This document shows, piece after piece, positions 20,278 through 42,349 of a stretch of DNA of 64,000 bases; position 1 is the first letter of the stretch; each line of letters opens with the position of its first letter. The position numbers were made by a program, and so were the translations under genes. The stretch is taken from the NCBI RefSeq assembly GCF_000721705.1, contig NZ_JOJL01000002.1:186001-250000 (forward strand). Reading direction: 5' to 3'. Below the pieces are notes generated by a model, which saw nothing but the letters and a program-made list of their open reading frames with translations, did not search any database and was not told where the DNA came from. Origin of the DNA: Actinoplanes subtropicus. Lineage in GTDB: Bacteria > Actinomycetota > Actinomycetes > Mycobacteriales > Micromonosporaceae.

Positions 20278-20315
20278 GGACGGGCACGACCAGTGCGGAT
20301 AAGTCGTGCCCGTCC
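20278..20315. terminator. Hairpin terminator after the van-type ligase pseudogene
   Basis: A 13-bp perfect stem, GGACGGGCACGAC (20278-20290) and GTCGTGCCCGTCC (20303-20315), encloses a 12-base loop. It lies 8 bases beyond the TAA (20326-20324) of the minus-strand ligase remnant. There is no long T-run, as is common in actinomycetes. It could also stop transcripts coming from the GH92 gene. Confidence 0.7.
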
Positions 20316-20323
20316 CAACGTCG

Positions 20324-20872: not shown

Positions 20873-20908
20873 GCCGATTCTCCGAGTCGTAGGCTGTTTA
20901 CCTTGACG

Positions 20909-20930
20909 ATTATAAAGGTGTTGGTCACCT
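20909..20930 (-). promoter_or_regulatory. Promoter -10 box with overlapping inverted repeat, for the ligase remnant
   Basis: On the minus strand a perfect TATAAT (20914-20909) sits 36 bases before the ATG of the ligase remnant. A perfect inverted repeat AGGTG-N5-CACCT (20916-20930) lies immediately upstream, between the -10 box and the expected -35 position. It may be a regulator site. No good -35 hexamer is seen at 17-18 bases, which suits an activator-dependent promoter. Confidence 0.45.
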
Positions 20931-21169
20931 AAACGATCAGCCTCCACCCAGCTGGGGTGCCGGAATGGCCAAGGTGCTGCGGTCGGCAGCCTACCGTACG
21001 GGCCGGTGCGTCGCACGTCCTACATGGACACGCACGGACATTGCCCGGATCTCGGAGGCCAGCTCACGGGGAAAGATGCCAATGGTCATCAATTCATAAA
21101 CCGCCAGCTCAGCGTGTGTTCGGCCGACTGCGGCGCCGGGCTCGTGCGGTATGGGCATTCGGCGAGGGG
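20931..21169. other. Intergenic DNA between divergent promoters, no gene supported
   Basis: Base composition falls here compared with the flanks. A 61-codon minus-strand frame (21176-20991) exists, but its codon bias is weak, its start would overlap the -35 box of the plus-strand promoter, and it resembles nothing I know. I see no RNA gene or mobile-element end. The stretch separates the decayed ligase gene from the biosynthetic operon. Confidence 0.4.
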
Positions 21170-21199
21170 TTGACATGATTGACGAGACGAACCTAGTAT
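21170..21199 (+). promoter_or_regulatory. Sigma-70-like promoter of the biosynthetic operon
   Basis: TTGACA (21170-21175), an 18-base spacer and TAGTAT (21194-21199) form one of the most consensus-like promoters in the window. A transcript starting near 21206 would have a short leader containing AAGGA before the GTG at 21224. No comparable promoter is needed further down, because the following genes mostly overlap. Confidence 0.7.
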
Positions 21200-21223
21200 C
21201 TTGAACATCAAGGAAACTTTACG

Positions 21224-21400
21224 GTGCGCTTGGTCGGCATGCGTAATGCGCTATTCGAGGCGTTGCCGTCTATTTTCCATGCCCGATTCTTTGAAGTCCA
21301 CGGTGTGCCGGGGGGCGCTGTGTACATGCGCGGCTTAGCGTCCATCAAGTCGGCGGTCGATCGTCGAGACCGCCCCCTGAACGAACGTAAAACCACGTGA
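21224..21400 (+). CDS. 58-residue peptide, first gene of the biosynthetic operon
   Basis: The GTG start lies 25 bases after the -10 box, with AGGA 9 bases upstream. The stop TGA overlaps a TGATGAGGG stretch that is the ribosome site of the exporter gene 15 bases on. The peptide begins MRLVGMRNALFEALPSIF, has an aromatic middle containing HARFFEVHGVPGGAVY, and ends with a charged tail, RRDRPLNERKTT. It has no cysteine and no signal peptide. Codon third positions are less GC-biased than in neighbours, as is often seen in small precursor peptides. It could be a ribosomal peptide precursor or scaffold, or a leader peptide. No leader-processing protease or RRE domain is encoded nearby, so function is open. 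Confidence 0.5.
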   Translation: MRLVGMRNALFEALPSIFHARFFEVHGVPGGAVYMRGLASIKSAVDRRDRPLNERKTT

Positions 21401-21415
21401 TGAGGGTTCTTCAGC

Positions 21416-22702
21416 ATGTCGCAATCATCCGGCGAGTCCGCCACGAGCGTCGCCGACGAACGACTTTGGTCGCGAAACTTCCGGATGTATTTCACCGCGC
21501 GGATAGCCTCGCTGTTCGGGGACACCATGCTTCCGGTCGCCCTGACCGCCGCGGTGCTGCACGCGGGCTACGGCACATTTGGCGTCGGCTTGGTGCTTGC
21601 GGCGTCGATGGCGTCGTGGGTGTTGCTGATGCTCTTCACCGGAGTGCTCGCCGACCGCGTCGGCGTGATGCCGATGATGATCTCCGCGGACGCCATGCGG
21701 TTCGTGGTCCAGGTGGTGCTCGCCGGTTCCCTCTTGCTGAGCCGGCCGTCACTCTGGCTGATCGTCGGGCTGCAGGGGGTCGCCGGCATCGGCACGGCGC
21801 TGTTCGAGCCGGGCAACGGGAGCCTCGTCACCCGGATCACGACGGACGTCCAGCGGGCCAACGGGGTCCTGCGTACGGCCCAGGCGATGGTCTCGATCAT
21901 CGGGCCGGCCGTCGGCGGCGCGCTGCTCGCCGTCGCGAATTCGCCCGCGGTCATCGCGGTCGACGGAATCACCTTCCTGGTCAGCGGCCTCAGCCTCGTC
22001 ATGGTCCGGCTGCCGGCGGGCGCGCCGCCGGTCGGCCGTGGCCGGATGCTAGCCGACCTGGTGGACGGCTGGCACGAGTTCGTGTCGCGTCGCTGGCTGT
22101 GGACGGTCATCCTGATCTTCTGCATCTTCGGCCTGGTGGTGTTCGGCCCGTTCCTGGTGATCAGCGCGTCGACCATCACCGAGCACCGTGGTTCGACCAT
22201 TTACGGGCTGTCGGTCGCCATGCAGGGTGTCGGCGGCGTGATCGGCGGAATCGCGGCCGCTCGCATCAGGCCACGACGGCCCTTGTTCGTGGCGGCGTGC
22301 GCTTTCCTGCTTTACATCCCACAGTTCCTCGTGGTAGCGGTGAACGCGGTTCCGGCGTTCCTCTTCAGCGCGATGGCGGTGGGTGGGATGGGGCGGACGA
22401 TTTGGCACGTGCTGTGGATGAGCACCGAGCAGAGACACCTCCCGACGTCGGTTCTCAACCGCATTTACGCGTACGACGTCACGGGTTCCATCATGCTGAT
22501 TCCCGTGGGCCGGGCGCTTACCGGTCCGCTGGTCGCCGGCATCGGATCCGTGCCGACGCTATTAATCAGCACCGTGGTGGCCATGGCTGGATGCTTCACG
22601 ATGCTGGCGATGCGCGGTATTCGTCGGCTTCCGGCGCAGCCGGCTCCGGCGATAAGTGACAAGTCATGTTCGGAGTTCGATAAAACGAGTGTTGTTCAAT
22701 GA
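21416..22702 (+). CDS. MFS exporter
   Basis: The 428-residue protein has about 12 membrane helices and the MFS_3/enterobactin-exporter style, with RNFRMYFTARIASLFGDTML at the start and ADRVGVMPMMISADAMRF in the 2-3 loop. Such carriers often export natural products and give self-resistance. The ATG has GAGGG upstream and follows the peptide gene by 15 bases in the same transcript. About 93 bp of AT-richer DNA separates it from the next gene, where a second promoter could lie. It most likely exports the product of this cluster. Confidence 0.88.
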   Translation: MSQSSGESATSVADERLWSRNFRMYFTARIASLFGDTMLPVALTAAVLHAGYGTFGVGLVLAASMASWVLLMLFTGVLADRVGVMPMMISADAMRFVVQVVLAGSLLLSRPSLWLIVGLQGVAGIGTALFEPGNGSLVTRITTDVQRANGVLRTAQAMVSIIGPAVGGALLAVANSPAVIAVDGITFLVSGLSLVMVRLPAGAPPVGRGRMLADLVDGWHEFVSRRWLWTVILIFCIFGLVVFGPFLVISASTITEHRGSTIYGLSVAMQGVGGVIGGIAAARIRPRRPLFVAACAFLLYIPQFLVVAVNAVPAFLFSAMAVGGMGRTIWHVLWMSTEQRHLPTSVLNRIYAYDVTGSIMLIPVGRALTGPLVAGIGSVPTLLISTVVAMAGCFTMLAMRGIRRLPAQPAPAISDKSCSEFDKTSVVQ

Positions 22703-22795
22703 CGTATATGAATGTTACGGTCTTTCCTAACGCCGCCACCTCCCGATTTGAAGTTCGCCGAGGTTAACCGTGCCGACCATCGGAGGGATTTGCGC

Positions 22796-23935
22796 ATGGA
22801 CCATTCGACCGAAGGGCCGAGTGCCGCCTGGCATTTGCTCGAGCTGGTTTCGGTGGCCGACCCGGGCACGGAAATGTTCGGGCGAGCGGCGGACCTGGGC
22901 GGGCGCATAGGCGATGGCGGGATCGATCCCGACGAGCTGCTCAGCCAGGCCGCACGCCACGCGCTGGTGCCCATTCTCGCCGACTTCCTCGTGCAGGCCG
23001 AGCTGCTGACCCGCATGCCGCACAACGTGCAACGCCACCTGCTCGGCGCGCTGTACTGGAACCGGCACAAGACGGCCGAGTACGTGGCCGAGGCGAGGTC
23101 GGTGGCCGGCGCCCTCCAGCGGAAGGGCATCCGGGTCGCCTGTACCAAGGGAGTGGTGTGCCAGCAGCTCCTCTACGACGGCCGCGGTACGCGCCATTTC
23201 GGCGACGTCGACCTGATGGTGCTGCCCGACCAGAGTGCGGCGGCGGCCGAGACGTTGTTCGAGCTCGGTTACGTCGGGGGGAAACGCATCGATCATCGGA
23301 CCGGCGAGCTCGTCGACATCGCACGCTCGCTCAAGCTGACCTATCAGCTCTATCCGGACCACCTGCCGCACTTCTTCCGGGTTCCGGGCCGCGCCGGGAT
23401 CCCGTACTACATGGTCGATGTCGCGCACAGCTTGACATGGTTCAGTAGCGGGTGGCAGATCCCGATGGACGAGGCGCTCGCCGTCCGTACCGAGATCGAC
23501 GGTCTTCCCGCGCTGTCGACGCCGTACGGGTTCCTCTTCGTCCTGCTGCACCTCTTCCGGGAAGCCTGGTTCGAGCGCACCATCCGCGAGAAGGACGCGC
23601 GGCTGACCCAGTTCGCCGACGTCTGGCGGTTCTGGCACCGCCGGGGTCGCGAGTCGGCGGACGAGATCATCGAAATCTCCGGCAAGTACGGCATCAGGCC
23701 GGCGGTCGCGTGGGTGGCCGGCCATGTGGACGCCCTCTACGGCAGCCGGCTCGTGGACGAGCTCCGGGTCCGCGACCTGGCCGACGACCGGTGGCTGCGC
23801 AGTGCCGGCGCGGCCGACGGCGGCTACCTGGCCTGGGACGGCGACATGCGTCGCCGATTGTGTGATCGCTTCACGGTCGAGCTTCGGCACGCCCCGGAGC
23901 CACCGTTCGCGGACGCGGCGCGCGTGCTCCGCTGA
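22796..23935 (+). CDS. Nucleotidyltransferase-fold protein (NTP_transf_5-like)
   Basis: The 379-residue product starts at an ATG with GGAGGG 8 bases upstream. Its middle matches the uncharacterised nucleotidyltransferase family often linked to peptide natural-product clusters: C116-T-K118-G119, then LLYDGRGTRHFGDVDLMVLP with the metal Asp pair D137xD139. A helical C-terminal half follows, containing LLHLFREAWFERTIREKDAR. The fold suggests transfer of a nucleotidyl group to a substrate or protein. Position second after the exporter, within one transcript, ties it to the pathway. Its exact reaction is unknown. Confidence 0.75.
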   Translation: MDHSTEGPSAAWHLLELVSVADPGTEMFGRAADLGGRIGDGGIDPDELLSQAARHALVPILADFLVQAELLTRMPHNVQRHLLGALYWNRHKTAEYVAEARSVAGALQRKGIRVACTKGVVCQQLLYDGRGTRHFGDVDLMVLPDQSAAAAETLFELGYVGGKRIDHRTGELVDIARSLKLTYQLYPDHLPHFFRVPGRAGIPYYMVDVAHSLTWFSSGWQIPMDEALAVRTEIDGLPALSTPYGFLFVLLHLFREAWFERTIREKDARLTQFADVWRFWHRRGRESADEIIEISGKYGIRPAVAWVAGHVDALYGSRLVDELRVRDLADDRWLRSAGAADGGYLAWDGDMRRRLCDRFTVELRHAPEPPFADAARVLR

Positions 23936-23969
23936 GTGACAGAACCCGTCGATGGACAAGGAGAGCGCG

Positions 23970-25589
23970 ATGACGTATGAGCTGAAGCAGGCTCGAACCG
24001 ATGCTTCGAAGGTGCTCCTCGTTTCCGGTCTCTGGCCCTATCACGAGGTGGACGAGAAGAAGTCGGTCGGCCGTCTGAACATCTTCCACAACGACGAACT
24101 CACCACCGGCATCACCGGGCTGATCGGTGTCGATTCGATCTACGATCTGGCGATCCGGCGCGAGGGCGGCACGCAGCGTCTCTTCACGCCCACCACCAGC
24201 GTGGAGCCCACGCTCGTCTCGGTGGCGCTGCGCAGTCTGATCGGGGACGAGGCGTCGGTCACCGAGGTCGAGTTGGCGAGCGTCGTCGGCGGCATTCCCG
24301 CGTCGGATACGTCGCTGCGGGCGGCCGCCAAGGACGCCGTCTGCCTGCTGTCCACCAGCTACATCACCAACTTCGCCGACCTGCGGCGGGTGGTGGACAA
24401 CCTGCGCCGACTCCACGTGGGCTACCTCGTGGTCGGCGGTTATCTGGCGACGCGCAATGCCGAGAGCATGCTGGAGTGCGGTGCCGACGCGGCCATCGTC
24501 GGCGACGCCGAGCATTCCATCGCCCCGCTGCTGGCGGCGCTGCGCGGCGGCGCCGACTTCGGCCGGGTGCCCAACCTGCGCTATCGCGACGAGAACGGCG
24601 AGCAGGTGTACACCTCCGATCACCTCGTACCGCTGGACGAGATTCCCGTGACGATTCCGTCCGGCGATCTGACCGGCATGTCCGTGCCGTACGAGTCGAT
24701 GCGCGGCTGCCCCTACAAGTGCGCCTTCTGCTCGTACCCGTTGGTCTCCACGAAATGGCGGTTCAAGAGCGCCGAAAAGCTCATCGAGGACTGGACGACG
24801 ATCGAACGGCGAGGCGCGAAGGACATCGTCGCCCTCGACTCGACGTTCACCATTCCGCCGAAGCGGCTCACCGACTTCCTCAACCTGTACGCCGAGTCGA
24901 GGATGACGATCCCGTGGGGCGCCTATTCGCGGGTGACGCCGCTGCGCAACGAGGAGACGGTCATCCGCCTGAAGAGGGCCAACAACCGGTGGCTGTCGAT
25001 CGGCTTCGAGAGCGGAAGCCAGCGGATGCTCGACCTGATGAAGAAGGGCACCCGGCTGAAGGACGCCTACCCGGCCCTGGCCAACCTGCGCAAGCACCGG
25101 ATCTCGGCGTGGTCGAACTTCATCATCGGCTATCCGGGCGAGACCCCGCAGACCGTGGCGGAGACGGTCGCGTTCATGTCGGACCACCTCTTCGGGTTCT
25201 ACGGGATCTACGTGTTCAACATCCGTGACCGGGCCATGCCCGTGCTCAGCGACCCACAGGCGGGCGTTCACTGGGACGACGTCGGCAGCGACTGGTCGCA
25301 CGCGACGATGACGAGCGGGGAGGCCTCCGAGATCCGCTGGAGGTCGTACGTGCGGGTGGCGGAGCAGAACGCCGAGGCCATCAACATCGACGTCTTCCGC
25401 GGGAGCAATGTCGAGAAGGACTACGGCGCGTGGAGCTCGGCCTTCCCCGTGCTGAAGCTGCTCGAGCGGTGGTCGCTGCGGCAGGTCGATCCCGGCATGG
25501 CGGGCCTCGGCGCCCGGGACGACCTCGCCGCGATCGAGTCGGAGCTGCGTCGCCGGCTGGTTCCGGCGTCCGGGGACGCGATCCAGTGA
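23970..25589 (+). CDS. Cobalamin-binding-domain radical SAM enzyme
   Basis: The 539-residue protein starts at the ATG with AAGGAG 6 bases before it; an earlier ATG at 23952 is less well placed. Residues about 10-200 look like a B12-binding Rossmann domain, ending LVVGGYLATR and GADAAIVGDAEHSIAPLL. The radical SAM core follows, with the cluster cysteines C247xxxC251xxC254 in RGCPYKCAFCSYP. Later core strands include WLSIGFESGSQRMLDLMKKG and NFIIGYPGETPQTVAETV. Relatives methylate unactivated carbon or rearrange carbon skeletons. The frame ends in a GTGA overlap with the ATP-grasp gene. In this pathway it probably C-methylates an intermediate (inference). Confidence 0.88.
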   Translation: MTYELKQARTDASKVLLVSGLWPYHEVDEKKSVGRLNIFHNDELTTGITGLIGVDSIYDLAIRREGGTQRLFTPTTSVEPTLVSVALRSLIGDEASVTEVELASVVGGIPASDTSLRAAAKDAVCLLSTSYITNFADLRRVVDNLRRLHVGYLVVGGYLATRNAESMLECGADAAIVGDAEHSIAPLLAALRGGADFGRVPNLRYRDENGEQVYTSDHLVPLDEIPVTIPSGDLTGMSVPYESMRGCPYKCAFCSYPLVSTKWRFKSAEKLIEDWTTIERRGAKDIVALDSTFTIPPKRLTDFLNLYAESRMTIPWGAYSRVTPLRNEETVIRLKRANNRWLSIGFESGSQRMLDLMKKGTRLKDAYPALANLRKHRISAWSNFIIGYPGETPQTVAETVAFMSDHLFGFYGIYVFNIRDRAMPVLSDPQAGVHWDDVGSDWSHATMTSGEASEIRWRSYVRVAEQNAEAINIDVFRGSNVEKDYGAWSSAFPVLKLLERWSLRQVDPGMAGLGARDDLAAIESELRRRLVPASGDAIQ

Positions 25590-26536
25590 CGACCGGGTCC
25601 AAGGTGGCCGGCATCGTGGTCGGCGGGCGCGGGTTGCTGGAACAGTCCTCGATCAAGGTGGGGGAGCGGCTCCGTACGGTGCTGGCCGACCGGCGCATAC
25701 CGGCGGCCGTCCTGCGGCTGGACGCCGAGTTCGTCGCCGCCGTCGCCAGCGGGTCGCTCGCCGTGCTGATCGACGTCTCGCAGGGCAACTACGGCCGCGT
25801 CGAGCCCGTCGCCGACCTGGCCGGCGTCCCGTTCGTCGGAACGGGCGCGAGACAGGCGGAGATCTACGACAAGGTCCGTCTCAAGACCTTCCTGCGCCGG
25901 TCGGGCTGGCCGACGCCGGACCAGATCGTGCTGGATCGCGACCTGCCGTCGCACGCCTGGGACCTGCTGGGCCTCATCACCGGGCCGGTGGTCATGAAGC
26001 CCGCCACGGCGGACCTGCTGAGCCAGGGCGTGCGGCTGTTCCCCAGCCCCGGCGACATCGACGAGATGCGACGGCACCTGCGCTACCTGTTCCGGCTGGA
26101 CCACACGGTCGTGGTCGAGCTGCAGGCCGAGGGCGTCGAGCTGTGCGTCGGCTACCACGCCGACGCGGCCGGCCTCGAGGTCTTCACGCCCATGACGATC
26201 CGCATGGACGGGCCGATCTTCGACCACGAGACCAAGGTCTCCCGCCGGTACGCCTTCGTGCCGGCCGAAGTCTCCGCGGGCGTCGCCGACCAGCTCCGCC
26301 GCTTGGGCGCCGCGCTTGCCGACGAGTTCGCCCTGCGCGGCTTCTTCTACATCAACGCCATCGTCACCGAAGACGACGAGGTCACCGTGTTCGACGCCGG
26401 CGCAACGGTCGGACTGAGCGAGAGCAGCTACTTCCCGGTCGCCGCGGCCGGCACCGGACTGACCGTCGACGACCTGCTGGAGAGGCAGTTCGTCCGGCCC
26501 GCGTGCGCTGCCCTCCACCGCATCGGGGTCTGCTAG
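25586..26536 (+). CDS. ATP-grasp protein related to D-Ala-D-Ala ligase, with altered metal site
   Basis: The 316-residue protein starts at a GTG overlapping the previous stop. It shows the D-alanine:D-alanine ligase order: N-terminal GIVVGGRGLLEQSSIKVGER, then YDKVRLKTFLRRSGWPTPDQ, then GPVVMKPATADLLSQGVRLF, and a final ATP-grasp strand. The metal-ligand positions differ from family norms: the RVD-type Asp is replaced in YINAIV, and the E-x-N motif is replaced by D-A-G in VFDAGATVGLSESSYFP. It may therefore ligate with a changed metal geometry, or be a non-catalytic or otherwise adapted ligase. It probably makes an amide bond with an amino acid in the cluster pathway. Confidence 0.8.
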   Translation: MTTGSKVAGIVVGGRGLLEQSSIKVGERLRTVLADRRIPAAVLRLDAEFVAAVASGSLAVLIDVSQGNYGRVEPVADLAGVPFVGTGARQAEIYDKVRLKTFLRRSGWPTPDQIVLDRDLPSHAWDLLGLITGPVVMKPATADLLSQGVRLFPSPGDIDEMRRHLRYLFRLDHTVVVELQAEGVELCVGYHADAAGLEVFTPMTIRMDGPIFDHETKVSRRYAFVPAEVSAGVADQLRRLGAALADEFALRGFFYINAIVTEDDEVTVFDAGATVGLSESSYFPVAAAGTGLTVDDLLERQFVRPACAALHRIGVC

Positions 26537-26538
26537 TG

Positions 26539-28289: not shown

Positions 28290-29116
28290 GCGCCACCCTG
28301 GCGTCGGCGCGCCCGGCGGTCCAGAGCGGGGCGGAGCTGGCCGCCACCGCCAGACACATCCGCGAACAGACCCTATGGCTCTCCGTGGACCAGCCGCACC
28401 ATCTGGGCGGGCAGCTGTCGTGCGTCGAGATGCTCGTCGCCGTGCTCTACGGGCACGCGCCGCGGTTCCCCGACACCCGGTTCGTGCTGTCCAAGGGGCA
28501 CGCCTGCATCACCCTGTACGCGATCCTGGCCGACCAGGGCCGAATCGACCGGGCCGACCTCACGACGATGATGAAGTTCGGGGGCCGGCTCCTCGGCCAT
28601 CCCTGCCGGACCACGACCCCGGCGATCGACGTCTCGACCGGCTCGCTCGGGCAGGGGCTGTCGGTGGCCGTCGGCATGGCCGATGCCGCTCGCCGGCAAG
28701 GCCTCGACACCCGCGTGTACGTCGTGCTGGGCGACGGCGAGATGCAGTCCGGCCAGGTGTGGGAGGCCCTGATGTTCCTGGGCCAGCACGGCCTGGACAA
28801 CCTGCGGATCCTCATCGACAGCAACGGCGGCCAGGCCGACGGCGCCGTCGACGGCATCGTGTCGCTCGAACCGCTGGCGAACAGGCTCGAGTCCTTCGGC
28901 CTGGACGTGACCGAGTGCGACGGCCACGACCTGGACGCGCTGATGGCCGCCCTCGACCGCGGGCGGCCGGGACGTACGCCGGTCACAGTGGCGCGGACCG
29001 TCAAGGGCAAGGGCGTCAGCTTCATGGAGGGCGACCATTCCTGGCACAGCGGCAGCCTGTCGGCCGGGCAACTGCGATTGGCACTGGCGGACACCGGATG
29101 CGTGGGCAAACCGTGA
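28286..29116 (+). CDS. Transketolase, N-terminal (TPP-binding) subunit
   Basis: The 276-residue subunit carries the thiamine-pyrophosphate motif beginning G149-D-G151 in VLGDGEMQSGQVWEALMF and ending in IDSNGGQ, plus FVLSKGHACITLYAILAD and GSLGQGLSVAVGMADAARR. These are shared by split transketolases. The GTG start overlaps the previous stop. The C-terminal partner is encoded immediately downstream. Split transketolases in biosynthetic clusters usually transfer a two-carbon ketol unit to an unusual acceptor rather than serve the pentose phosphate cycle. That role here is inference. Confidence 0.92.
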   Translation: MSATLASARPAVQSGAELAATARHIREQTLWLSVDQPHHLGGQLSCVEMLVAVLYGHAPRFPDTRFVLSKGHACITLYAILADQGRIDRADLTTMMKFGGRLLGHPCRTTTPAIDVSTGSLGQGLSVAVGMADAARRQGLDTRVYVVLGDGEMQSGQVWEALMFLGQHGLDNLRILIDSNGGQADGAVDGIVSLEPLANRLESFGLDVTECDGHDLDALMAALDRGRPGRTPVTVARTVKGKGVSFMEGDHSWHSGSLSAGQLRLALADTGCVGKP

Positions 29117-30036
29117 AACCGTTCGGCAGGGTGCTGCTCAATCTGCTGCCCCAGGACGAGCGCATCGTCGTGGTGGACGGCGACCTTTCGCGCAGCAGCG
29201 GCACGAGCGCCGTACGCGACCGGTGGCCCGAGCGTTTCCTCAACGCGGGCATCGCCGAGCAGAACGCCATGGGACTGGCGGCCGGCATGGCGCTGATGGG
29301 CATGCGGCCGATCGTGCACACCTTCGCGGCCTTCGCCTCGATGCGTGCTTGCGAGCAGATCCGGACGTCGATCGCTTATCAGAACCTCAACGTGACCATC
29401 TGCGTCACCAAGGGCGGCCTGAGCGCGGCGCGGTCCGGGCCCACCCACCACGCGATCGAGGATCTGGCGATCATGCGGGCGATCCCGGGCATGACGGTGG
29501 TCGCGCCGCGCGACTTCGGGGAACTGGAGGCGCTGTTGCGGGGGTTGATCCGGGCGCCGGGGCCGGCCTACGTACGGATTCCGCCCGAGTCCGAGGCGGG
29601 TGGCGCGGGCGACGCCGCCGTGACCCCCGGCCGCGGGGTCCCGCTGCGCCAGGGCACGGACGTTCTGATCATCGTCACCGGCACGATGAGCGACGTCGCG
29701 CTGAGCGCCGCGGAGACGCTCGCGGCCCGCGGTATCCAGGCCGGCGTGCTGCATCTGCACACGCTCAAGCCTCTCGACCGGCTACTGATCGAGGAGCGGG
29801 CGGCGCGGGCGAGGCTCGTTGTCACGGTGGAGGAGCACAGCATCATCGGCGGCCTCGGCTCGGCGGTGGCGGAGCTCTTGGCCGAGAACTCGGCGGCGCC
29901 GCTGCTGCGGGTCGGCATTGACGACCAGTTCTGCTATGGCGCGGGAACGCATCGAGAAATGCTGGACCACTATTGTGTGTCCTCTGCGGAATTGGTACGA
30001 CGAATTGAGGGGCGACTTTCCGTTGGCTGCGCATGA
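29113..30036 (+). CDS. Transketolase, C-terminal (Pyr/C) subunit
   Basis: The 307-residue partner contains the transketolase pyrimidine-domain motif with the catalytic-type Glu in FLNAGIAEQNAMGLAAGMAL, then TFAAFASMRACEQIRTSIAY, GPTHHAIEDLAIMRAIPGMT and the C-terminal domain GTDVLIIVTGTMSD. I chose GTG 29113, whose overlap with the preceding stop matches the style of this operon; ATG 29098 is an alternative. With the upstream subunit it should form a complete transketolase-like enzyme. The gene ends inside the next coding sequence. Confidence 0.92.
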   Translation: MKPFGRVLLNLLPQDERIVVVDGDLSRSSGTSAVRDRWPERFLNAGIAEQNAMGLAAGMALMGMRPIVHTFAAFASMRACEQIRTSIAYQNLNVTICVTKGGLSAARSGPTHHAIEDLAIMRAIPGMTVVAPRDFGELEALLRGLIRAPGPAYVRIPPESEAGGAGDAAVTPGRGVPLRQGTDVLIIVTGTMSDVALSAAETLAARGIQAGVLHLHTLKPLDRLLIEERAARARLVVTVEEHSIIGGLGSAVAELLAENSAAPLLRVGIDDQFCYGAGTHREMLDHYCVSSAELVRRIEGRLSVGCA

Positions 30037-31045
30037 GGTTTTGCGATCGCTCGCGGCCCAGCGGGCGAGCTATCCGGTTCTCGAGCGGTTTTACGCCCGG
30101 CACGTCGAGGGGTTCGACCCGGCTGTATTGCCGAAACTGCCGCGAATGGCGTTCACCATCGTGACCCCGGACGGCGTCATGCAGGGGGTGCATCGCCGTT
30201 TGCTGGACCAGTACGGCGACATGGTGGTGGCGTACCGGGTGCGGACCATGACCCCGGAGCTGGCGGAGCGGATCTACGTCGACGGGTTGGTGACGGACGT
30301 CCCCGGCCGGCACATCTCGTCGTGGTGGATCAAGCGCAAGGTCTTCGATCTGGGCGAATCCCTTGGCCTGCTGCTGCGACACCCGTCGGACGACGGCTTC
30401 CAGGAGACGTTCACCGCGGCCAAGGGCCGGTCCGATCCCCTGCTGGCCGAGCCGGGGACGCTGCGCAACGCCTATCGGACGCCGAACAAGACCTTCGCCC
30501 TGCTGCACAGCTCCGACGATCTGCTGAGCATGGTGTACGAGGCCTCGGTGTTCTTCGAGCCCGGCCGGATCGAGGAGCTTTTCGACCGTCCCGCGGTGTC
30601 CGCGGCGGAGGTCGGGGCGCTTCGCTCCTACGCCGCGCCGGCCGAGATGAGCCGCATCGAGCAGTACCGGCTGCTGTACCGGGTCAAGCGCCGGCTGCTG
30701 ATCGAGATCGCCGCCGACCGGCCGGGCGTGGTCGAGCACCTGCTGCCGGTATACGACGCCGCGGACGCGGTCGTCGCCGAGAACCCGGGATTCCTCGCGG
30801 AGACCGATGCGATCGCCGGGCTGCTGAAGGAGGAGGCGGGGATACTCGGGGCCACCGCGGATCCGGCCCGGTTCGCGCCCGCGTCGGCGCTGGCCTGCCT
30901 GCGTCTGCTGGCGGATTTCGCCGCGTATCCGCAGCTTCCCTTCGCTCAGTTCGCCGCCGTGCTGGAGGCGCTGGGCGTGCCCCTCAGCGCTCTGGAACTC
31001 ACGGCGCTCGAAAGCCTGTTCTTCTTCTACCGCCCCACCGCATAG
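30023..31045 (+). CDS. NDK-like protein with catalytic His but without the active-site Lys
   Basis: The 340-residue product starts at TTG 30023, with GAGGGG 9 bases upstream; no ATG or GTG fits better. Residues about 43-185 align with nucleoside diphosphate kinase: MAFTIVTPDGVMQGVHRRLL, then GTLRNAYRTPNKTFALLHSS followed by DDLL. The phosphorylated His of NDK corresponds to H162 in LLHSSDD, but the Lys of the K-P-D motif is T48 here. A helical C-terminal half (residues 190-340) is additional to the NDK fold of about 140 residues. It is paralogous to the next gene. A phosphoryl-transfer or nucleotide-handling role in the pathway is likely, but the substrate is unknown. Confidence 0.7.
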   Translation: MAAHEVLRSLAAQRASYPVLERFYARHVEGFDPAVLPKLPRMAFTIVTPDGVMQGVHRRLLDQYGDMVVAYRVRTMTPELAERIYVDGLVTDVPGRHISSWWIKRKVFDLGESLGLLLRHPSDDGFQETFTAAKGRSDPLLAEPGTLRNAYRTPNKTFALLHSSDDLLSMVYEASVFFEPGRIEELFDRPAVSAAEVGALRSYAAPAEMSRIEQYRLLYRVKRRLLIEIAADRPGVVEHLLPVYDAADAVVAENPGFLAETDAIAGLLKEEAGILGATADPARFAPASALACLRLLADFAAYPQLPFAQFAAVLEALGVPLSALELTALESLFFFYRPTA

Positions 31046-31057
31046 GGAGGCCCATTC

Positions 31058-32140
31058 GTGTCCCTGACCTTCGGCGACCTCGTACGGGATGCCGCCCGGC
31101 TGCCCGACTACCCGCTGTCCCCGACCGACCTCGCCGACCTGGGCGCCGCCGGCCTGAGCGGCGCGGCCGACCAGGTCGCATTCATGATCGTCACGCCCGA
31201 CGCCATTCACCGGGGGCTGCACGAGCAAGTCGTCGACCGGGTGACCCGGGCGGGATTCCGGGTCCTGGCGTGGCGGGTGAAATACCTCGGCGACGACGAG
31301 ATCGAGGAGCTCTACAAGTACGGCTATCGCCGCAAGGTCTTCGACAACCAGCGTACGCATTGGTTCCTCACCCGCCGCGGCCTGGGCTTCGGCGCCTCGC
31401 TGGCGCTGCTGCTGCACCACCCGGACGGCGATGCACCCGGTCGGCTGGCCCGGCTCAAGGGCGCTTCCCAGCCGCGCGAGGCGAGTCCGCAGTCCATCCG
31501 CGGCGAGCTGCGCAGCTTCTCCAAGATTCTGGCGCTGATGCACAGCTCGGACGACGGCGTGGGCGTCCTGCGGGAGTCCCTGCTCTACTTCGGCAAGAGC
31601 GAGGTGCGGGCCGCCGTGGGCCGCATCGCCGGTGGCCCGGCGCCCGGCGACGACCCGATCACCGCGGCGCTGGACGCGATCCGTCCCTCGGCGGCCGACG
31701 ACGACCCCTTCGCCATCTTCCTGACCGTCAAGCTCCGCGCGACCCGGATGCTGGAGAACCACCCCGTTTCGCCGCCGGAGACCCGGCGGGCGTGCCGGGC
31801 GATCGCCGACGGCCTGCGCGCCGCGCTGGACCGGCTTGCGCGAGAGTCCGGCATCGGCCCGCGGGAGAAGGTCGTCCAGGAGGTCCTCGCCGCCGAGCGC
31901 GATGTGCTGGAGGGTCTGTCGGCGCCGTTTGCGCCTTCCGGCCCGGAGGATCCGTACGGTCTGCGTGGGCTCCTGTGGTGGCGCCTGCTCACCCTGCTGC
32001 GCACGCTGAGCCGCGGCGACGGCTTCGCCGGCCTCGACGGCGACGAACTGGAAAGGGAACTGCGCGGCTGCGGCATCGGGCTCAGCGATTGGGAGGCGCT
32101 GGCGATACAGAACCTGCTCTTCTTCTGGAACTGTCCCTGA
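31058..32140 (+). CDS. NDK-like protein, second paralogue
   Basis: The 360-residue protein starts at a GTG with GGGAGG upstream. It repeats the plan of the previous gene: an N-terminal extension, an NDK-like domain with MIVTPDAIHRGLHEQVVDRV and ILALMHSSDD, then a helical tail. The NDK histidine is again residue 162, and the Lys of the K-P-D motif is again a Thr (T46). Both changes shared by the pair show that they were in the ancestor and that the two are a duplicated, specialised lineage. They may act as a heterodimer. No other gene of this form is in the window. Confidence 0.7.
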   Translation: MSLTFGDLVRDAARLPDYPLSPTDLADLGAAGLSGAADQVAFMIVTPDAIHRGLHEQVVDRVTRAGFRVLAWRVKYLGDDEIEELYKYGYRRKVFDNQRTHWFLTRRGLGFGASLALLLHHPDGDAPGRLARLKGASQPREASPQSIRGELRSFSKILALMHSSDDGVGVLRESLLYFGKSEVRAAVGRIAGGPAPGDDPITAALDAIRPSAADDDPFAIFLTVKLRATRMLENHPVSPPETRRACRAIADGLRAALDRLARESGIGPREKVVQEVLAAERDVLEGLSAPFAPSGPEDPYGLRGLLWWRLLTLLRTLSRGDGFAGLDGDELERELRGCGIGLSDWEALAIQNLLFFWNCP

Positions 32141-32155
32141 ACGGAGTGGCTCGCG

Positions 32156-33454
32156 ATGGCGTACTTCGCGCTTTCCCCGGAACAACGCAGCATGCTCTTC
32201 CTGGAAGGGTTGTTCGGGCCCGGCATCTTCCACAACATGACGGTGCGCGTTCCGGTCCCAGAGCGGATCCCGGAGTCCGACGTCCGGGCGGCCGTCCGCC
32301 GGCTGCATCGGCGTCAGGAGGCCTTGCGTACGCGGCTGGTCGGGCACTCGCAGTTCGTGCAGTCCGTGGAGGACACAGTGCCGGCGCTGACCGTACGGCG
32401 GTTGACCGACGGGCAGGACGTCGGCGAGGAGCTGGCCAGACGTCGTGCCGAGCTGCGGAACGTCCCGCAGGACCGGTCGGTGGCCGGCCGGGCCAGCCAT
32501 GAGCTGGTCGAGTCGGCCGATGGGCGGGACCGGCACCTGCTGGTCAATCTCGACCACTTCGTCTGCGACGGGTACTCCGCCCGCGTCGCGGCCGAGGAAC
32601 TGACCGCGCTGGTGAACGGCGGGGACGCCGGCCCGCCGTCGGGCTTCGCCGGGCTGTGCCGCGACCGTGCCCGGGCCGCCGCGTCGGACGATCGAGAGGC
32701 GAGCTACTGGCGTACGGCCCTCGACGGGGTGGAACCGTTGTCCGGACTGGTGCCTCGCCCCGGCAACGACGCGGAACTCACCTGCTCCCAAGTGGATCTC
32801 TGGTATCCGGGCCCACGCCTGCGCGCCTGCGTGGACGCGCTGAGCGGCGCCTGCGGGGTAACGCCGTTCGCGGTGCTGGCGGCCCTCGCCGGCCTGGCGA
32901 TCTGGCGGCGCACCGGGCGTTCGCGCATCGCGCTGTTCACCCCGGTCTCCAACCGGCAGCAGCCGGGCCTGGAATCGGCCGTCGGCTATTTCGCGCATGA
33001 CCGCCCCATCGTCTGCCGGGTCGACCCGGACCAGAGCGTCACGACCTACCTCAAGTCGACGATGTCGCGGTCCTGGCGGAGTTTCCGCAACGCCGTCCGC
33101 AGCGTCGGTGACCTGGTGTGCGAGGTGCCCGAGCTGGGTCAGGCGCTGCTGGCGGACGGCGTCGACTATGTGCAGCTGCACGTCTGGATGGAGGAGGGCA
33201 CGTCGGGCCCGGCGCCGGCCGAGCCGCGCGCCGTGGTCACCCATGGACCGTTCCGGCCGGCCCACGACCTCAGCGTCACCACCATGCGGTTCGCCTTCGC
33301 GTCCGACCGGACGACCGCCCGCGCCTTCGCCGGTGGCGGTCCGGCCGGGCTGGCCGAGGCCGAGTCGCTGGCGGGCGAGGTGCTCACGCTGCTCACCGCC
33401 GCGGCCGGCGCTGGGGACATCACGGTGGGCGCCCTGGCCGAACTGGGTTCCTGA
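32156..33454 (+). CDS. Stand-alone NRPS-type condensation domain protein
   Basis: The 432-residue protein is one condensation domain. It begins YFALSPEQRSMLFLEGLFGP, has the catalytic motif D133-H134-F-V-C-D138-G139 (HxxxDG form with the catalytic His kept), and the later landmarks NRQQPGLESAVGYFAHDRPI and a C-terminal hydrophobic strand set. There is no adenylation or carrier domain on the same chain. Together with the following free carrier protein it should transfer a carrier-bound aminoacyl group to an amine or hydroxyl acceptor. It starts at an ATG with GGAG upstream. Confidence 0.85.
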   Translation: MAYFALSPEQRSMLFLEGLFGPGIFHNMTVRVPVPERIPESDVRAAVRRLHRRQEALRTRLVGHSQFVQSVEDTVPALTVRRLTDGQDVGEELARRRAELRNVPQDRSVAGRASHELVESADGRDRHLLVNLDHFVCDGYSARVAAEELTALVNGGDAGPPSGFAGLCRDRARAAASDDREASYWRTALDGVEPLSGLVPRPGNDAELTCSQVDLWYPGPRLRACVDALSGACGVTPFAVLAALAGLAIWRRTGRSRIALFTPVSNRQQPGLESAVGYFAHDRPIVCRVDPDQSVTTYLKSTMSRSWRSFRNAVRSVGDLVCEVPELGQALLADGVDYVQLHVWMEEGTSGPAPAEPRAVVTHGPFRPAHDLSVTTMRFAFASDRTTARAFAGGGPAGLAEAESLAGEVLTLLTAAAGAGDITVGALAELGS

Positions 33455-33496
33455 CCGATCAGACGCGCCGGTGTGCGCGCGAACCGAGGAGGGGAA

Positions 33497-33754
33497 ATGC
33501 GCGAGGAGACGAGAGCGGTGCTCAGGACCGTTCCGAAGCTGGCCGGCATCGTGGACACGTTGCCGGCCGACGCCGACCTGTGGAGCGCCGGCATGGACTC
33601 GATGACCAGTGTGCAGGTGATGGTGCGGCTGGAGGACCACTTCGCGGTGGAGTTCCCCGACGAGGCACTCACGCGGGAGACCTTCGCCAGCATCGACGCC
33701 ATCGCCGCCGCTTTGTCCGCGGTGCTCGGCGCCCGGGGAACGGCGGCGCGATGA
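33497..33754 (+). CDS. Free acyl/peptidyl carrier protein
   Basis: The 85-residue protein has the carrier fold with the phosphopantetheine serine S35 in AGMDSMTSVQVMVRLEDHF. The start ATG has the strong ribosome site GAGGAGGGG. It is flanked by the condensation gene and the flavoprotein gene and overlaps the latter (ATGA). It is the natural partner of the aminoacyl:carrier ligase two genes downstream. The phosphopantetheinyl transferase must be encoded elsewhere. Confidence 0.9.
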   Translation: MREETRAVLRTVPKLAGIVDTLPADADLWSAGMDSMTSVQVMVRLEDHFAVEFPDEALTRETFASIDAIAAALSAVLGARGTAAR

Positions 33755-34932
33755 CCACCGAGATGTCGGCCGCGCCCGGCCACGCTTCCGCCGCCGAGCA
33801 GGCGAGGGAGAGGGAAGACGACCTTCGGTACGTCGCGGAACGCGCCGCCGCGGCGGCGGCCGAGGTGGACCGGGAGGCACGGTTCCCGGCCGAGACGCTG
33901 GCCGCCCTCCGCGAGCGGAACCTGCTCAACGCCGTCGCGCCGGAAGACCTCGGCGGACCGGGGCTGACCCTCGCCGAGCTCGTCTCCGTCGCCGTGCGGC
34001 TCGGCCGCGCTTGCGGCGCGAGCGCAATGGTGTGGGCCATGCACCAGGTGCAGTTGGCCTGCTTGGTACGCCATCACCCGGCGTCGCCGATGCTCGAACC
34101 CGTCCTGCGCGGCCAGTGGCTGATCGCCTCGGTGACGAGCGAACCCAAGTCCGGTGGCGATCTGCGCCAGAGCCACGCCGGCGTCCAGGCCGACGCCGCC
34201 GGGGATCGCGAGCGGACCCTGGTCAAGCGGGGCAGCACCGTCTCGTACGGGGCGTACGCGGAGGCGTTCCTGGTGACCGCCCGGGCCGCCCCGGACGCCG
34301 ACCCGGGCAACCAGGTCGCGGTGCTGGTCAGTCGGCCTCAGGTGCGGCTCGAGAAGGTCGGCGACTGGAACACCCTGGGCATGCGCGGCACCTGCAGCCC
34401 GGCGTTCGACCTCGCCGCCGCCTTCGATCGGGACCAGGTCTTCCCCGTCCCGTTCCGGGAGGTGGCGGCCCGCACGATGGTTCCGCTGTCCCATCTGCTC
34501 TGGGCGGGAGTATGGGTGGGCCTGGCCACCGAGGCGGTCGACCGGGCGGTCTGCTGCACACGCCGGCGGAGCCGCGACGCGACCATCGTCGACGACCCGG
34601 CGCTCGCCCGCGCGCACATCCGGCTGGCCGGCATCCGGGCCCAGCTCGATGCTGCGGTCCAGGCGCTCGAGCCGGTCCTGCGCTCCGGCAAGGAGCCCAC
34701 CCTGTCTCGTTCGGTGGAGCTGAACGCGCTCAAGGTAGCGGCGTCCGAGGGCGCCGTCGACGTCGCGCGGATGGCTCTGGGCGTCTGCGGGATGGCCGGC
34801 TTCACCGAGGACGGTCCCTACTCGGTGGCTCGGATTCTGCGGGACGCCTGCTCGGCGCCCCTGATGATCGGGAACGGGCGGCTGCTGTCGGCCAACTCGA
34901 GAATGCTCCTGCTGTCCGGGGGTGAACGGTGA
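33751..34932 (+). CDS. Acyl-CoA-dehydrogenase-like flavoprotein acting on a carrier-bound amino acid
   Basis: The 393-residue protein follows the acyl-CoA dehydrogenase plan: a helical N-domain with FPAETLAALRERNLLNAVAP and EDLGGPGLTLAELV, a beta domain with ASVTSEPKSGGDLRQ and WNTLGMRGTCS, and a C-terminal four-helix domain ending VARILRDACSAPLMIGNGR. In other pathways, such enzymes oxidise proline on a carrier to pyrrole, or install alpha,beta-unsaturation. Here the carrier protein lies one gene before and the aminoacyl:carrier ligase one after, all with overlapping stops and starts, so an aminoacyl-S-ACP substrate is likely. The actual amino acid is unknown. Confidence 0.85.
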   Translation: MTTEMSAAPGHASAAEQAREREDDLRYVAERAAAAAAEVDREARFPAETLAALRERNLLNAVAPEDLGGPGLTLAELVSVAVRLGRACGASAMVWAMHQVQLACLVRHHPASPMLEPVLRGQWLIASVTSEPKSGGDLRQSHAGVQADAAGDRERTLVKRGSTVSYGAYAEAFLVTARAAPDADPGNQVAVLVSRPQVRLEKVGDWNTLGMRGTCSPAFDLAAAFDRDQVFPVPFREVAARTMVPLSHLLWAGVWVGLATEAVDRAVCCTRRRSRDATIVDDPALARAHIRLAGIRAQLDAAVQALEPVLRSGKEPTLSRSVELNALKVAASEGAVDVARMALGVCGMAGFTEDGPYSVARILRDACSAPLMIGNGRLLSANSRMLLLSGGER

Positions 34933-35753
34933 CAGCCTCCGGAGCGCCGCTGACCTCCCGGACGGAAGGGCGTCTTCTCGACGGACTGCGCTTCGCCATC
35001 GACAACCGGTTCAGCGAACCTGGCAACGAACACTACGTCGCGCCGCCGGTCATCGCCGCCCGGACCATCGACCAGGTGGGCTACCGGGAGTCCTTCCCAC
35101 ACCTGCTGGGCAGCGTCTACGCGGCGCCCCGAGGCGGACCGGTCGCACCGAGCGACCTGGTGCTCACCCCAGCCGCCTGTCACCACCTCTATCCGCTGTA
35201 CTGCGGCGACTCCGTGTCCTCCGAGGTCCTCACCAGCGTGGAGGCGACCTGCTTCCGCGGCGAGGCCACCGCCGAGACCGGCCGGCTGCGGTCGTTCCGG
35301 ATGTACGAGGTGGTCTGCCTCGGCCGAGCCGCCGCGACGGACGCCTGGCGGGATCGCATGCTGGCCTCGGCCGCCGAGTTCCTGCGGCGGCTCGGGCTGG
35401 CCGTCGAGGTCGTCGCCGCGAACGATCCGTTCTTCGGCCGGACCGGCGGGCTGCTCGCCGCCAACCAGCGGTCGCAGCAGCTCAAGTGGGAGCTGGCGGT
35501 CGCCGTGTCGGACGGGATCACCCAGGCGGTCGCCTCGGCCAACTACCACAAGGATCATTTCGGCGAGGTCTTCGCGATCACCGACGCCGACGGGCGGGTG
35601 GCGCACAGCGCGTGCCTCGCGTTCGGACTGGACCGCGTCGTCCTGGCCCTGCGGCACCGGCACGGCGAGGACGTCACCGCATGGCCCGCGGACGTCCGGT
35701 CGCTGCTGTCGGTGGGTGAGAAGACACTCAGTCGGCAGTCGGTCCGTTCCTAG
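34929..35753 (+). CDS. Aminoacyl:carrier-protein ligase (class II seryl-tRNA synthetase-like)
   Basis: The 274-residue protein is a truncated class II synthetase without a tRNA-binding arm. Motif 2 is seen at about residues 104-128 (EATCFRGEATAETGRLRSF, with R110, E112 and E127), and motif 3 near 230-240 (AFGLDRVVLAL). The zinc-site pattern of this family is present: C84 in PAACHHLYPL, E127, and C229 in AHSACLAFG. These enzymes activate Gly, Ala or similar small amino acids and load them on a dedicated carrier protein, not on tRNA. It is the last gene of the operon, overlapping the flavoprotein gene. It ends 154 bp before the convergent ferredoxin gene. Confidence 0.88.
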   Translation: MTASGAPLTSRTEGRLLDGLRFAIDNRFSEPGNEHYVAPPVIAARTIDQVGYRESFPHLLGSVYAAPRGGPVAPSDLVLTPAACHHLYPLYCGDSVSSEVLTSVEATCFRGEATAETGRLRSFRMYEVVCLGRAAATDAWRDRMLASAAEFLRRLGLAVEVVAANDPFFGRTGGLLAANQRSQQLKWELAVAVSDGITQAVASANYHKDHFGEVFAITDADGRVAHSACLAFGLDRVVLALRHRHGEDVTAWPADVRSLLSVGEKTLSRQSVRS

Positions 35754-42312: not shown

Positions 42313-42349
42313 GACGGGACTGTAACGGCCGGTCGCCACCGGACCGCGG

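What the first reader, a model, noticed from the sequence alone, without database searches (positions are those of the whole stretch)
21170..35753. Probable undescribed biosynthetic gene cluster with a carrier-protein amino acid pathway and no modular NRPS or PKS
About 15 genes on one transcript, most with overlapping stops and starts, encode an exporter, a nucleotidyltransferase-like protein, a B12 radical SAM enzyme, an ATP-grasp ligase, an aminotransferase, a methyltransferase, a split transketolase, two NDK-like proteins, a condensation enzyme, a carrier protein, a flavoprotein and an aminoacyl:carrier ligase. I know of no described cluster with this set. The likely plan: the transketolase and aminotransferase make a non-protein amino acid, methylases modify it, the ligase loads another small amino acid on the carrier, the flavoprotein oxidises it there and the condensation enzyme joins the two.
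Basis: partly seen in the sequence, partly recalled or inferred. Interest (0 to 1): 0.88.

Follow-up and report, generated by a model that had tools for sequence, protein, structure and literature searches.

The report
Rare two-part natural product gene cluster
A bacterium carries a compact set of 14 genes that probably builds and exports a small unknown molecule by making an unusual amino acid and joining it to a second, chemically oxidised amino acid; a rearranged copy in another bacterium shows that the set belongs together, but the product is unknown.

Summary
Window 21416-35753 (+) is one packed run of 14 genes (reader: about 15). Kutzneria sp. CA-103260 has a locus with counterparts of all 14, rearranged, and none of the flanking genes tested: a real cluster with defined ends.

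Core genes (MFS, nucleotidyltransferase, B12-type radical SAM, ATP-grasp, class IV aminotransferase, methyltransferase, split transketolase, NDK-like pair) are 47-70% identical between the two; condensation domain, flavoenzyme and aminoacyl:carrier ligase only 31-33%, and the carrier proteins show no significant pairwise match. Carrier-flavoenzyme-ligase is a portable cassette seen elsewhere beside DUF1839, BtrH_N or NRPS genes.

Best reading: the core makes a C2-extended, methylated amino acid; the cassette loads and oxidises a small amino acid (N-oxidation or dehydrogenation); the free-standing C domain joins them. The NDK-like proteins keep the catalytic His and an Arg but not the usual Lys (9 of 9 aligned); their role is unknown.

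The radical SAM gene is rare: 1 of 300 family genomes (the own one); 0 of 392 genomes of a presumed Streptomyces genus, without positive control. No described match turned up in limited open-access literature searches. Substrates and product are inferred.

The parts
21170..21199 (+). promoter-like sequence upstream of the operon (TTGACA-18-TAGTAT)
   Evidence: consensus scan; 2 found against 0.8 expected in shuffles, so weak
21416..22702 (+). g1 MFS exporter, 428 aa
   Evidence: PF07690 E 2e-24; 55% identical homolog in L033
22712..23935 (+). g2 nucleotidyltransferase-like protein (PF14907), GDVDL motif kept, 407 aa
   Evidence: 115 bits, cutoff 31.2; 58% homolog in L033; motif
23952..25589 (+). 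g3 B12-type radical SAM enzyme, CPYKCAFC cluster motif, 545 aa
   Evidence: PF04055, nearest NCBIfam PhpK family well below cutoff; 70% homolog in L033; motif
25586..26536 (+). g4 ATP-grasp ligase, D-Ala-D-Ala ligase type, 316 aa
   Evidence: PF07478, PDB Ddl hits; 52% in L033
26536..27486 (+). g5 class IV aminotransferase, BCAT-like, 316 aa
   Evidence: PF01063 E 1e-37, PDB BCAT hits; 55% in L033
27483..28289 (+). g6 class I SAM methyltransferase, 268 aa
   Evidence: PF13649/PF08241; 63% in L033
28286..29116 (+). g7 split transketolase, N-terminal (ThDP) half, 276 aa
   Evidence: PF00456 E 1e-32; 68% in L033; 48% to the TK of a LysW-type cluster
29113..30036 (+). g8 split transketolase, C-terminal half, 307 aa; Ser at the position of E. 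coli TK Asp469 (number recalled)
   Evidence: PF02779/PF02780; PDB 6yaj split TK 246 bits; 62% in L033; residue
30023..31045 (+). g9 NDK-like protein 1, 340 aa (start codon uncertain)
   Evidence: PF00334 25.3 bits, cutoff 27; 50% to N-half of the 745-aa fused NDK-like protein of L033
31058..32140 (+). g10 NDK-like protein 2, 360 aa, catalytic-type His162 kept, Lys of the KPD motif replaced by Thr
   Evidence: PF00334 48.9 bits; 47% to C-half of the fused protein of L033; residues
32156..33454 (+). g11 free-standing condensation domain, DHFVCDG (second His kept), 432 aa
   Evidence: PF00668 E 1e-22; 33% in L033; motif
33473..33754 (+). g12 carrier protein, GMDSM motif, 93 aa
   Evidence: PF00550; NF005480 87 bits, cutoff 72
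33751..34932 (+). g13 acyl-CoA-dehydrogenase-fold flavoenzyme acting presumably on aminoacyl-carrier, 393 aa; no Glu at the usual catalytic position
34929..35753 (+). g14 SerRS-like amino acid:[carrier protein] ligase, 274 aa
   Evidence: NF005479 235 bits, below cutoff 357; PDB 4h2w/3mey (Bll0957) 188/183 bits

Best explanation
A rare, probably horizontally moving biosynthetic operon that assembles a small exported metabolite from two separately made parts. Part A (core): the split transketolase transfers a two-carbon unit to an aldehyde that lacks the usual alpha-hydroxyl, the class IV aminotransferase aminates the resulting ketone, the B12-radical-SAM enzyme C-methylates an unactivated carbon, the SAM methyltransferase adds a further methyl group and the ATP-grasp enzyme activates a carboxylate and forms an amide; the NDK-like pair performs a His-dependent phosphoryl transfer at some point. 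Part B (cassette): the SerRS-like ligase adenylates a small amino acid (Gly, Ala or Ser class) and loads it on the carrier protein, the ACAD-fold flavoenzyme oxidises it there (N-hydroxylation/N-oxidation, or dehydrogenation to imine/enamine), and the free-standing C domain transfers it to the amine of part A. The MFS protein exports the product; the nucleotidyltransferase either tailors it or masks it for self-protection. Shown: gene content, ends, family matches, retained motifs, the conserved set in a second genus, unequal conservation of the two parts. Inferred: every substrate, the order of steps and the product.
For: All 14 genes have counterparts in L033 (the carrier protein by position and motif only) with no shared flanking genes among 7 + 4 tested. 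Core identities: rSAM 70, TK-N 68, MT 63, TK-C 62, NTP5 58, AT 55, MFS 55, ATP-grasp 52, NDK1 50, NDK2 47; part B: C 33, ACAD 33, ligase 31. g13 is 61% identical to the ACAD of L112 and 49-50% to three others but 33% to Kutzneria's, and g12 matches the S. anulatus carrier (55% over 62 aa) but not Kutzneria's (E 0.5): part B looks exchanged. CP-ACAD-ligase recurs beside DUF1839, a BtrH_N protein (L114) and NRPS modules (L112). Retained motifs: CxxxCxxC, DHxxxDG, carrier Ser of g12, NTase GDVDL, TK GIAEQ; ligase Cys/Glu/Cys positions and a Ser in GLSSL of the Kutzneria carrier (read from the alignments). TK: the position of E. coli Asp469 (recalled) is Asp in the solved split TK, Ser in both clusters, Tyr in the TK of a LysW-type cluster and Leu in a plasmid TK without annotation. 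Three further loci probably link the rSAM and an NDK-like gene: equal longest-contig lengths 27366, 22528 and 14940 and equal sources.
Against: No substrate is known. The core lacks any gene that would obviously make the aldehyde for the transketolase. The ligase falls below its NCBIfam cutoff and lacks the N-terminal region of its relatives, so its activity is not certain. The rSAM B12-binding match is below the Pfam cutoff. The separate history of the two parts rests on one comparison cluster, and faster divergence of part B could give the identity pattern without exchange. Only 3 of the 13 other close rSAM proteins (P0005-P0017) have an NDK-like protein on a contig of equal length (the search scored only part of the candidates), and two NDK-like proteins (P0003, P0086) have no shown link to this rSAM.
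Confidence: 0.5

Rival explanations
1. The flavoenzyme is an N-oxygenase: the carrier-bound amino acid becomes an N-hydroxy, oxime or nitro acyl group (as proposed for AlnG/AlaD on carrier-bound diaminopropionate in alanosine), and that group is the warhead of the product.
For: 9 of 9 aligned ACADs (g13, Kutzneria's and seven relatives) lack Glu at the position that lines up with the Glu of butyryl-CoA dehydrogenase (that this is the catalytic Glu, E376 of MCAD, is recalled). Of 39 PDB sequence hits, ranks 1 and 2 are 3m9v/4kcf 'FAD-dependent oxidoreductase' (the sugar N-oxygenase KijD3, name recalled), rank 7 is DnmZ and rank 14 a nitrososynthase (weak scores). Two relatives at 49-50% sit with carrier protein, adenylation domain and the diaminopropionate gene sbnA. 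AlnG/AlaD precedent seen in passages of PMC11705231 and PMC7347517.
Against: Rank 3 in the same PDB list is a butyryl-CoA dehydrogenase with nearly the same E-value; the best NCBIfam hit is an acyl-CoA dehydrogenase family (FadE16, 110 bits, cutoff 600); no AlnG sequence was at hand to test clade membership; none of the 14 genes is a flavin reductase; AlnG's own role is a hypothesis in the sources seen.
Confidence: 0.4
2. The flavoenzyme is a dehydrogenase: glycyl- or alanyl-carrier is oxidised to an imine or dehydroalanyl (pyruvoyl-type) thioester which the C domain transfers, by analogy with the carrier-bound hydrazinoacetyl oxidation by the dehydrogenase AzsF in azaserine.
For: Acyl-CoA dehydrogenase fold and best family hits; carrier-bound oxidation by a dehydrogenase is shown for AzsF (PMC10445470, passages).
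Against: No Glu at the usual catalytic position in 9 of 9 aligned; AzsF was not compared by sequence.
Confidence: 0.35
3. A LysW-type (amino-group-carrier) azabicyclic amino acid pathway of the vazabitide/azinomycin kind (names recalled).
For: One of the plasmid TK pairs found (TK-C 42%, ninth of 12 rows listed; TK-N 48%) lies in a cluster with LysW, ArgB, ArgC and RimK.
Against: Other plasmid TKs score as well or better. No LysW, ArgB, ArgC, RimK, DegT or M20 homolog in the window (only chance matches at E>=0.37; in L033 RimK at E 0.06, LysW 0.97).
Confidence: 0.05
4. Two unrelated units: a core operon and a cassette that merely sit side by side.
For: The two parts differ in conservation and the cassette occurs without the core elsewhere.
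Against: Both parts co-occur again in Kutzneria in a rearranged order, and no gap between the 14 genes exceeds 18 nt.
Confidence: 0.08

Closest known systems
Homologous uncharacterised cluster, Kutzneria sp. CA-103260 (NZ_CP073318.1, about 3118584-3133772)
   Same: Counterparts of all 14 genes; nine core genes NTP5 to NDK2 in the same order
   Different: C domain and MFS inverted and moved, cassette moved to the front, NDK-like pair fused into one 745-aa protein, part B only 31-33% identical; the Kutzneria genome paper PMC10232511 has no occurrence of 'transketolase' or 'radical SAM' in its main text (term search and passages)
CP-ACAD-amino acid:[carrier protein] ligase cassette (Rhizobium, Mycetohabitans, L112, L114; ligase type Bll0957)
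   Same: Gene order g12-g13-g14; ligase closest in the PDB to Bll0957
   Different: Elsewhere followed by DUF1839, or near BtrH_N or NRPS genes, instead of a free-standing C domain, and without the core
L-alanosine pathway (AlnG/AlaD with carrier AlnI)
   Same: ACAD-family flavoenzyme proposed to act on a carrier-bound amino acid (PMC11705231, PMC7347517, passages)
   Different: No diaminopropionate genes and no cupin among the 14 genes; no AlnG sequence compared
Azaserine pathway (azs)
   Same: Carrier-bound amino-acid-like acyl group oxidised by a dehydrogenase (AzsF), then transferred by a C-superfamily (Cy) domain (PMC10445470, passages)
   Different: Here no hydrazine synthetase, no AMP-binding loader and no NRPS module
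LysW-dependent azabicyclic amino acid clusters (vazabitide, azinomycin type; names recalled)
   Same: Split transketolase next to an aminotransferase (L108)
   Different: No LysW, ArgB, ArgC or RimK in the window
PhpK family radical SAM P-methyltransferase
   Same: Best NCBIfam hit of g3, CxxxCxxC
   Different: 156.8 bits against a cutoff of 600

Membership tests
Amino acid:[carrier protein] ligase (Bll0957/PRK07080) | class II SerRS-like core without tRNA-binding domain | tested here: met
   188 bits to 4h2w over residues 26-262 of 274
Amino acid:[carrier protein] ligase (Bll0957/PRK07080) | Cys/Glu/Cys zinc ligands (positions recalled) | tested here: met
   AACHH, RMYEV and SACLAF align with the relatives
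Amino acid:[carrier protein] ligase (Bll0957/PRK07080) | curated equivalog cutoff of NF005479 | tested here: not met
   235 bits against 357; N-terminal part missing
Amino acid:[carrier protein] ligase (Bll0957/PRK07080) | loads an amino acid on the neighbouring carrier protein | not testable with these tools
   needs an assay; partner CP is present and passes NF005480 (87 against 72)
Nucleoside diphosphate kinase | catalytic His (His118, number recalled) | tested here: met
   His162 invariant in 9 of 9 aligned sequences, two of them the window's own
Nucleoside diphosphate kinase | Lys12 of the KPD motif (number recalled) | tested here: not met
   Thr in 8, Pro in 1 of 9; P0002, left out of that alignment, also has Thr; the more distant L028/L029 proteins have Arg
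Nucleoside diphosphate kinase | phosphate-binding Arg105 (number recalled) | tested here: met
   Arg148 invariant in 9 of 9
Nucleoside diphosphate kinase | Pfam NDK gathering score | tested here: inconclusive
   g10 48.9 passes, g9 25.3 fails at cutoff 27
Acyl-CoA dehydrogenase | catalytic Glu at MCAD E376 (recalled) | tested here: not met
   Ile in g13; no Glu in 9 of 9 aligned; the alternative Glu position of isovaleryl-CoA dehydrogenase was not tested
Condensation domain | HHxxxDG with second His | tested here: met
   DHFVCDG in g11, DHLVCDA in Kutzneria; first His replaced by Asp in both
Transketolase | both halves and the catalytic Glu | tested here: met
   PF00456, PF02779, PF02780; GIAEQ
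Transketolase | Asp469 (E. coli) for alpha-hydroxy substrates (recalled) | tested here: not met
   Ser in g8 and Kutzneria
LysW-dependent azabicyclic amino acid pathway | LysW carrier with ArgB/ArgC-like enzymes | tested here: not met
   no match better than E 0.37 in the window
PhpK P-methyltransferase | NCBIfam TIGR04479 cutoff | tested here: not met
   156.8 against 600
AlnG/AlaD N-hydroxylase | same clade and N-hydroxylating activity | not tested
   no AlnG/AlaD sequence was available; only published passages

The most novel reading that the evidence does not exclude
The NDK-like pair is a new kind of phosphohistidine enzyme of specialised metabolism: two paralogous subunits (fused in Kutzneria) with a C-terminal extension that keep the NDK His and Arg, have lost Lys12 and instead share an invariant Lys-Gly (K134-G135), and that phosphorylate a metabolite rather than a nucleotide; it works in a two-part gene cluster in which a fixed core scaffold is capped by an exchangeable, carrier-bound, oxidised amino acid.
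Probability: 0.25. Interest if true: 0.78.

Novelty: new variant of a known kind. Interest (0 to 1): 0.62.

Why it matters
It is a gene-cluster family with no described member that I could find, free of the NRPS and PKS modules on which most genome mining relies, so it would be easy to overlook. If the reading is right it shows a mix-and-match logic (constant core plus exchangeable aminoacyl cap), gives a testable role to the recurrent CP-ACAD-ligase cassette, and offers an NDK-like enzyme pair with an altered active site for study.

Tried and rejected
NDK-like pair as bait: housekeeping NDKs swamp whole-genome searches (278 of 396 genomes matched at E<=0.001), and the protein search returned only 3 proteins, one of them the window's own, among 7996 scored candidates. 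AlphaFold2 of g10 on a 4-sequence alignment gave mean pLDDT 51.5; it was not searched further because such a model gives meaningless matches; its C-terminal half is mostly helix in that low-confidence model. Viral contigs gave only 22-27% rSAM relatives and were dropped. LysW pathway rejected. PhpK/phosphinate reading not supported. Rfam at gathering thresholds found no RNA and ARAGORN no tRNA. The PDB search of the nucleotidyltransferase gave nothing below E 0.07. Plasmid searches: g4 gave D-Ala-D-Ala-ligase-type hits at 24-28% in the 12 rows listed, no record covering 80% of the query; g6 two Bacillus hits at 23%; g2 two weak hits, one in the S. anulatus plasmid that also carries the g13 relative, one in an unrelated Streptosporangium gene set. 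(0 of 392 genomes of the genus of G182) carries the tool's warning that an empty answer has no positive control; one search contained the own genome as a control. Rows set aside: of 39 rSAM loci (L030-L068) only L033 carried the core set; L052 and L059 had besides the rSAM only C, CP or MFS matches at 26-39%. The stretch between g14 and the P450 gene (35754-36107) was not examined beyond the ORF lists.
Full report
What is there. The window lies in an 11.26-Mb, 215-contig genome (C2:186001-250000). Frame analysis shows 14 genes on the + strand from 21416 to 35753, separated by 9-18 nt or overlapping by 1-14 nt at the 13 junctions. Pfam and NCBIfam assign g1 MFS, g2 PF14907 nucleotidyltransferase, g3 B12-type radical SAM, g4 Ddl-type ATP-grasp, g5 class IV aminotransferase, g6 class I methyltransferase, g7/g8 the two halves of a transketolase, g9/g10 NDK-like proteins, g11 a free-standing condensation domain, g12 carrier protein, g13 ACAD-fold flavoenzyme, g14 amino acid:[carrier protein] ligase. 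Upstream lie a GH92 gene and short ORFs, downstream a P450 on the other strand. Of the other ORFs of the window I scanned 20; none belongs to the families of the cluster except one further MFS-type transporter at 12856-14661.

A second cluster. A scan of genome contigs with an alignment of radical SAM relatives gave 36 loci. One, L033 of Kutzneria sp. CA-103260, encodes counterparts of the whole set: C(-), MFS(-), then CP, ACAD, ligase, NTP5, rSAM, ATP-grasp, AT, MT, TK-N, TK-C and the two NDK-like proteins fused into one of 745 aa. Seven flanking genes of the window have no match in L033, and four flanking genes of L033 none in the window, at E 1e-3. So the ends are g1 and g14. The Kutzneria carrier protein is assigned by position, overlap with the ACAD gene and a GLSSL motif; its pairwise match to g12 is not significant (E 0.5).

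Two parts with different conservation. Core genes are 47-70% identical between the two clusters, C, ACAD and ligase 31-33%. g13 is closer to ACADs of unrelated clusters (61% in L112; 49-50% in the S. anulatus plasmid, L113 and L114) than to Kutzneria's (33%); 3 of 392 genomes of the genus of G182 have such an ACAD at E<=1e-65. CP-ACAD-ligase stands before DUF1839 in Rhizobium and Mycetohabitans, near a BtrH_N protein, a methyltransferase and an FAD enzyme in L114, near NRPS modules, an HMGL-like and an asparagine-synthase-like protein in L112; CP-ACAD without this ligase stands beside sbnA and an adenylation domain in S. anulatus and L113 and beside an AMP-binding protein in Rhodococcus. I read this as a portable cassette that makes an oxidised aminoacyl-carrier for different acyltransferases. 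That part B was exchanged rather than fast-evolving is an inference from one cluster pair.

Distribution. The rSAM search gave 76 proteins at E<=1e-30 among 7995 scored candidates; 14 including the own one (P0004-P0017) are 48% or more identical over 89% or more of the query, and one more (P0018, 56%) covers 58%. In whole genomes the rSAM is found in 1 of 300 family genomes, the own one (E<=1e-70), and in 0 of 392 genomes of the genus of G182, presumably Streptomyces (E<=1e-90, no positive control). Both draws are samples of larger groups. A profile of NDK-like proteins gave 6 proteins at E<=1e-10 among 7997 candidates, the own one included. Three of these have the same longest-contig length and sources as an rSAM relative (27366, 22528, 14940), so I infer three further linked loci, one in Streptomyces althioticus; I could not fetch these contigs. 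The scatter over Kutzneria, Streptomyces and metagenomes suggests horizontal transfer.

Mechanistic clues. (1) Transketolase: the catalytic Glu is kept (GIAEQ); at the position of E. coli Asp469, which contacts the alpha-hydroxyl of the acceptor (recalled), both clusters have Ser, while the solved split TK has Asp, the TK of a LysW-type cluster Tyr and another plasmid TK Leu. This suggests an acceptor without alpha-hydroxyl. (2) Ligase: closest solved structures are 4h2w and Bll0957, a glycine:carrier ligase (recalled); which amino acid g14 takes is open. (3) Flavoenzyme: no Glu at the usual position in 9 of 9 aligned ACADs. The published proposal for AlnG/AlaD in alanosine is N-hydroxylation of carrier-bound diaminopropionate by an ACAD-family flavoenzyme (passages of PMC11705231, and PMC7347517); in azaserine, the dehydrogenase AzsF oxidises a carrier-bound acyl group (passages of PMC10445470). 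PDB matches are split the same way: N-oxygenase-type flavoenzymes at ranks 1, 2, 7 and 14 of 39 (functions of ranks 1, 2 and 7 recalled), a butyryl-CoA dehydrogenase at rank 3. Both reactions stay open. (4) C domain: second His of HHxxxDG kept in both clusters. (5) NDK-like pair: 9 sequences of two paralogous groups, two of them from the window, all keep P47-D48, K134-G135, R148, H162 and D165; none has the Lys of the KPD motif. Canonical nucleoside diphosphate kinase activity is therefore doubtful, His phosphorylation possible. (6) NTP5 keeps GDVDL and is as conserved as core enzymes, so it probably acts on the constant part or its precursor.

Comparison with the known. Searches of the open-access library for the gene combination found no described cluster: one search listed 4 papers that hold three of four terms (judged by listing only), none. 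Neighbouring questions (ligase family; DUF1839; the Kutzneria strain; alanosine) were seen as listings, with passages read only where cited. Subscription journals are mostly missing from the library, and no MIBiG search was available. The LysW pathway, PhpK and classical NDK or ACAD function each fail a defining feature (see membership table). I file the find as a new variant of a known kind: a small-molecule gene cluster with carrier-protein chemistry but without modular synthetases.

Confidence. That it is one biosynthetic cluster: high (about 0.95). That it works as a two-part assembly: about 0.5. Nature of the oxidation, identity of the amino acids, role of the NDK-like pair and of NTP5: open.

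Noticed in passing
L030, L032, L040-L042, L044, L060, L067 (rSAM relatives, 35-39% to g3): In 8 of 39 rSAM loci (L030-L068) an isopentenyltransferase relative and a LOG relative lie within the held flanks, in 5 of them idi too, and L031 of P. savastanoi has idi only: Rhizobium (one on a pTi plasmid), R. fascians A21d2 and two Streptomyces. [quoted passage not shown]
   Followed up: partly
L100:4438-7754, L103:7585-11157: Recurrent CP - ACAD - amino acid:[carrier protein] ligase - DUF1839 operon in proteobacteria; I found no product for it.
   Followed up: partly
L105 (S. anulatus NBC_01010 plasmid) and L113: Related clusters with CP, ACAD, sbnA, adenylation and condensation genes; a PF14907-type nucleotidyltransferase lies some 19 kb away in the former and about 1 kb away (30% to g2) in the latter.
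   Followed up: partly
L033:18369-20878: Next to the Kutzneria cluster lie a DHQ-synthase-like and a xylose-isomerase-like gene with no counterpart in the window.
   Followed up: partly
L028:14896-15681 and L029 about 14968-15492: Other NDK-like proteins with Arg at the Lys12 position, in gene sets with trpD, AMP-binding, epimerase, aldo/keto reductase and PIG-L genes on two Streptomyces plasmids.
   Followed up: no
window 39001-42339 (-): Protein kinase fused to WD40 repeats, 1112 aa.
   Followed up: no
window 20001-24000: G+C falls to 0.65-0.66 just before and at the start of the operon, against 0.70-0.78 in most 2-kb steps of the window.
   Followed up: no
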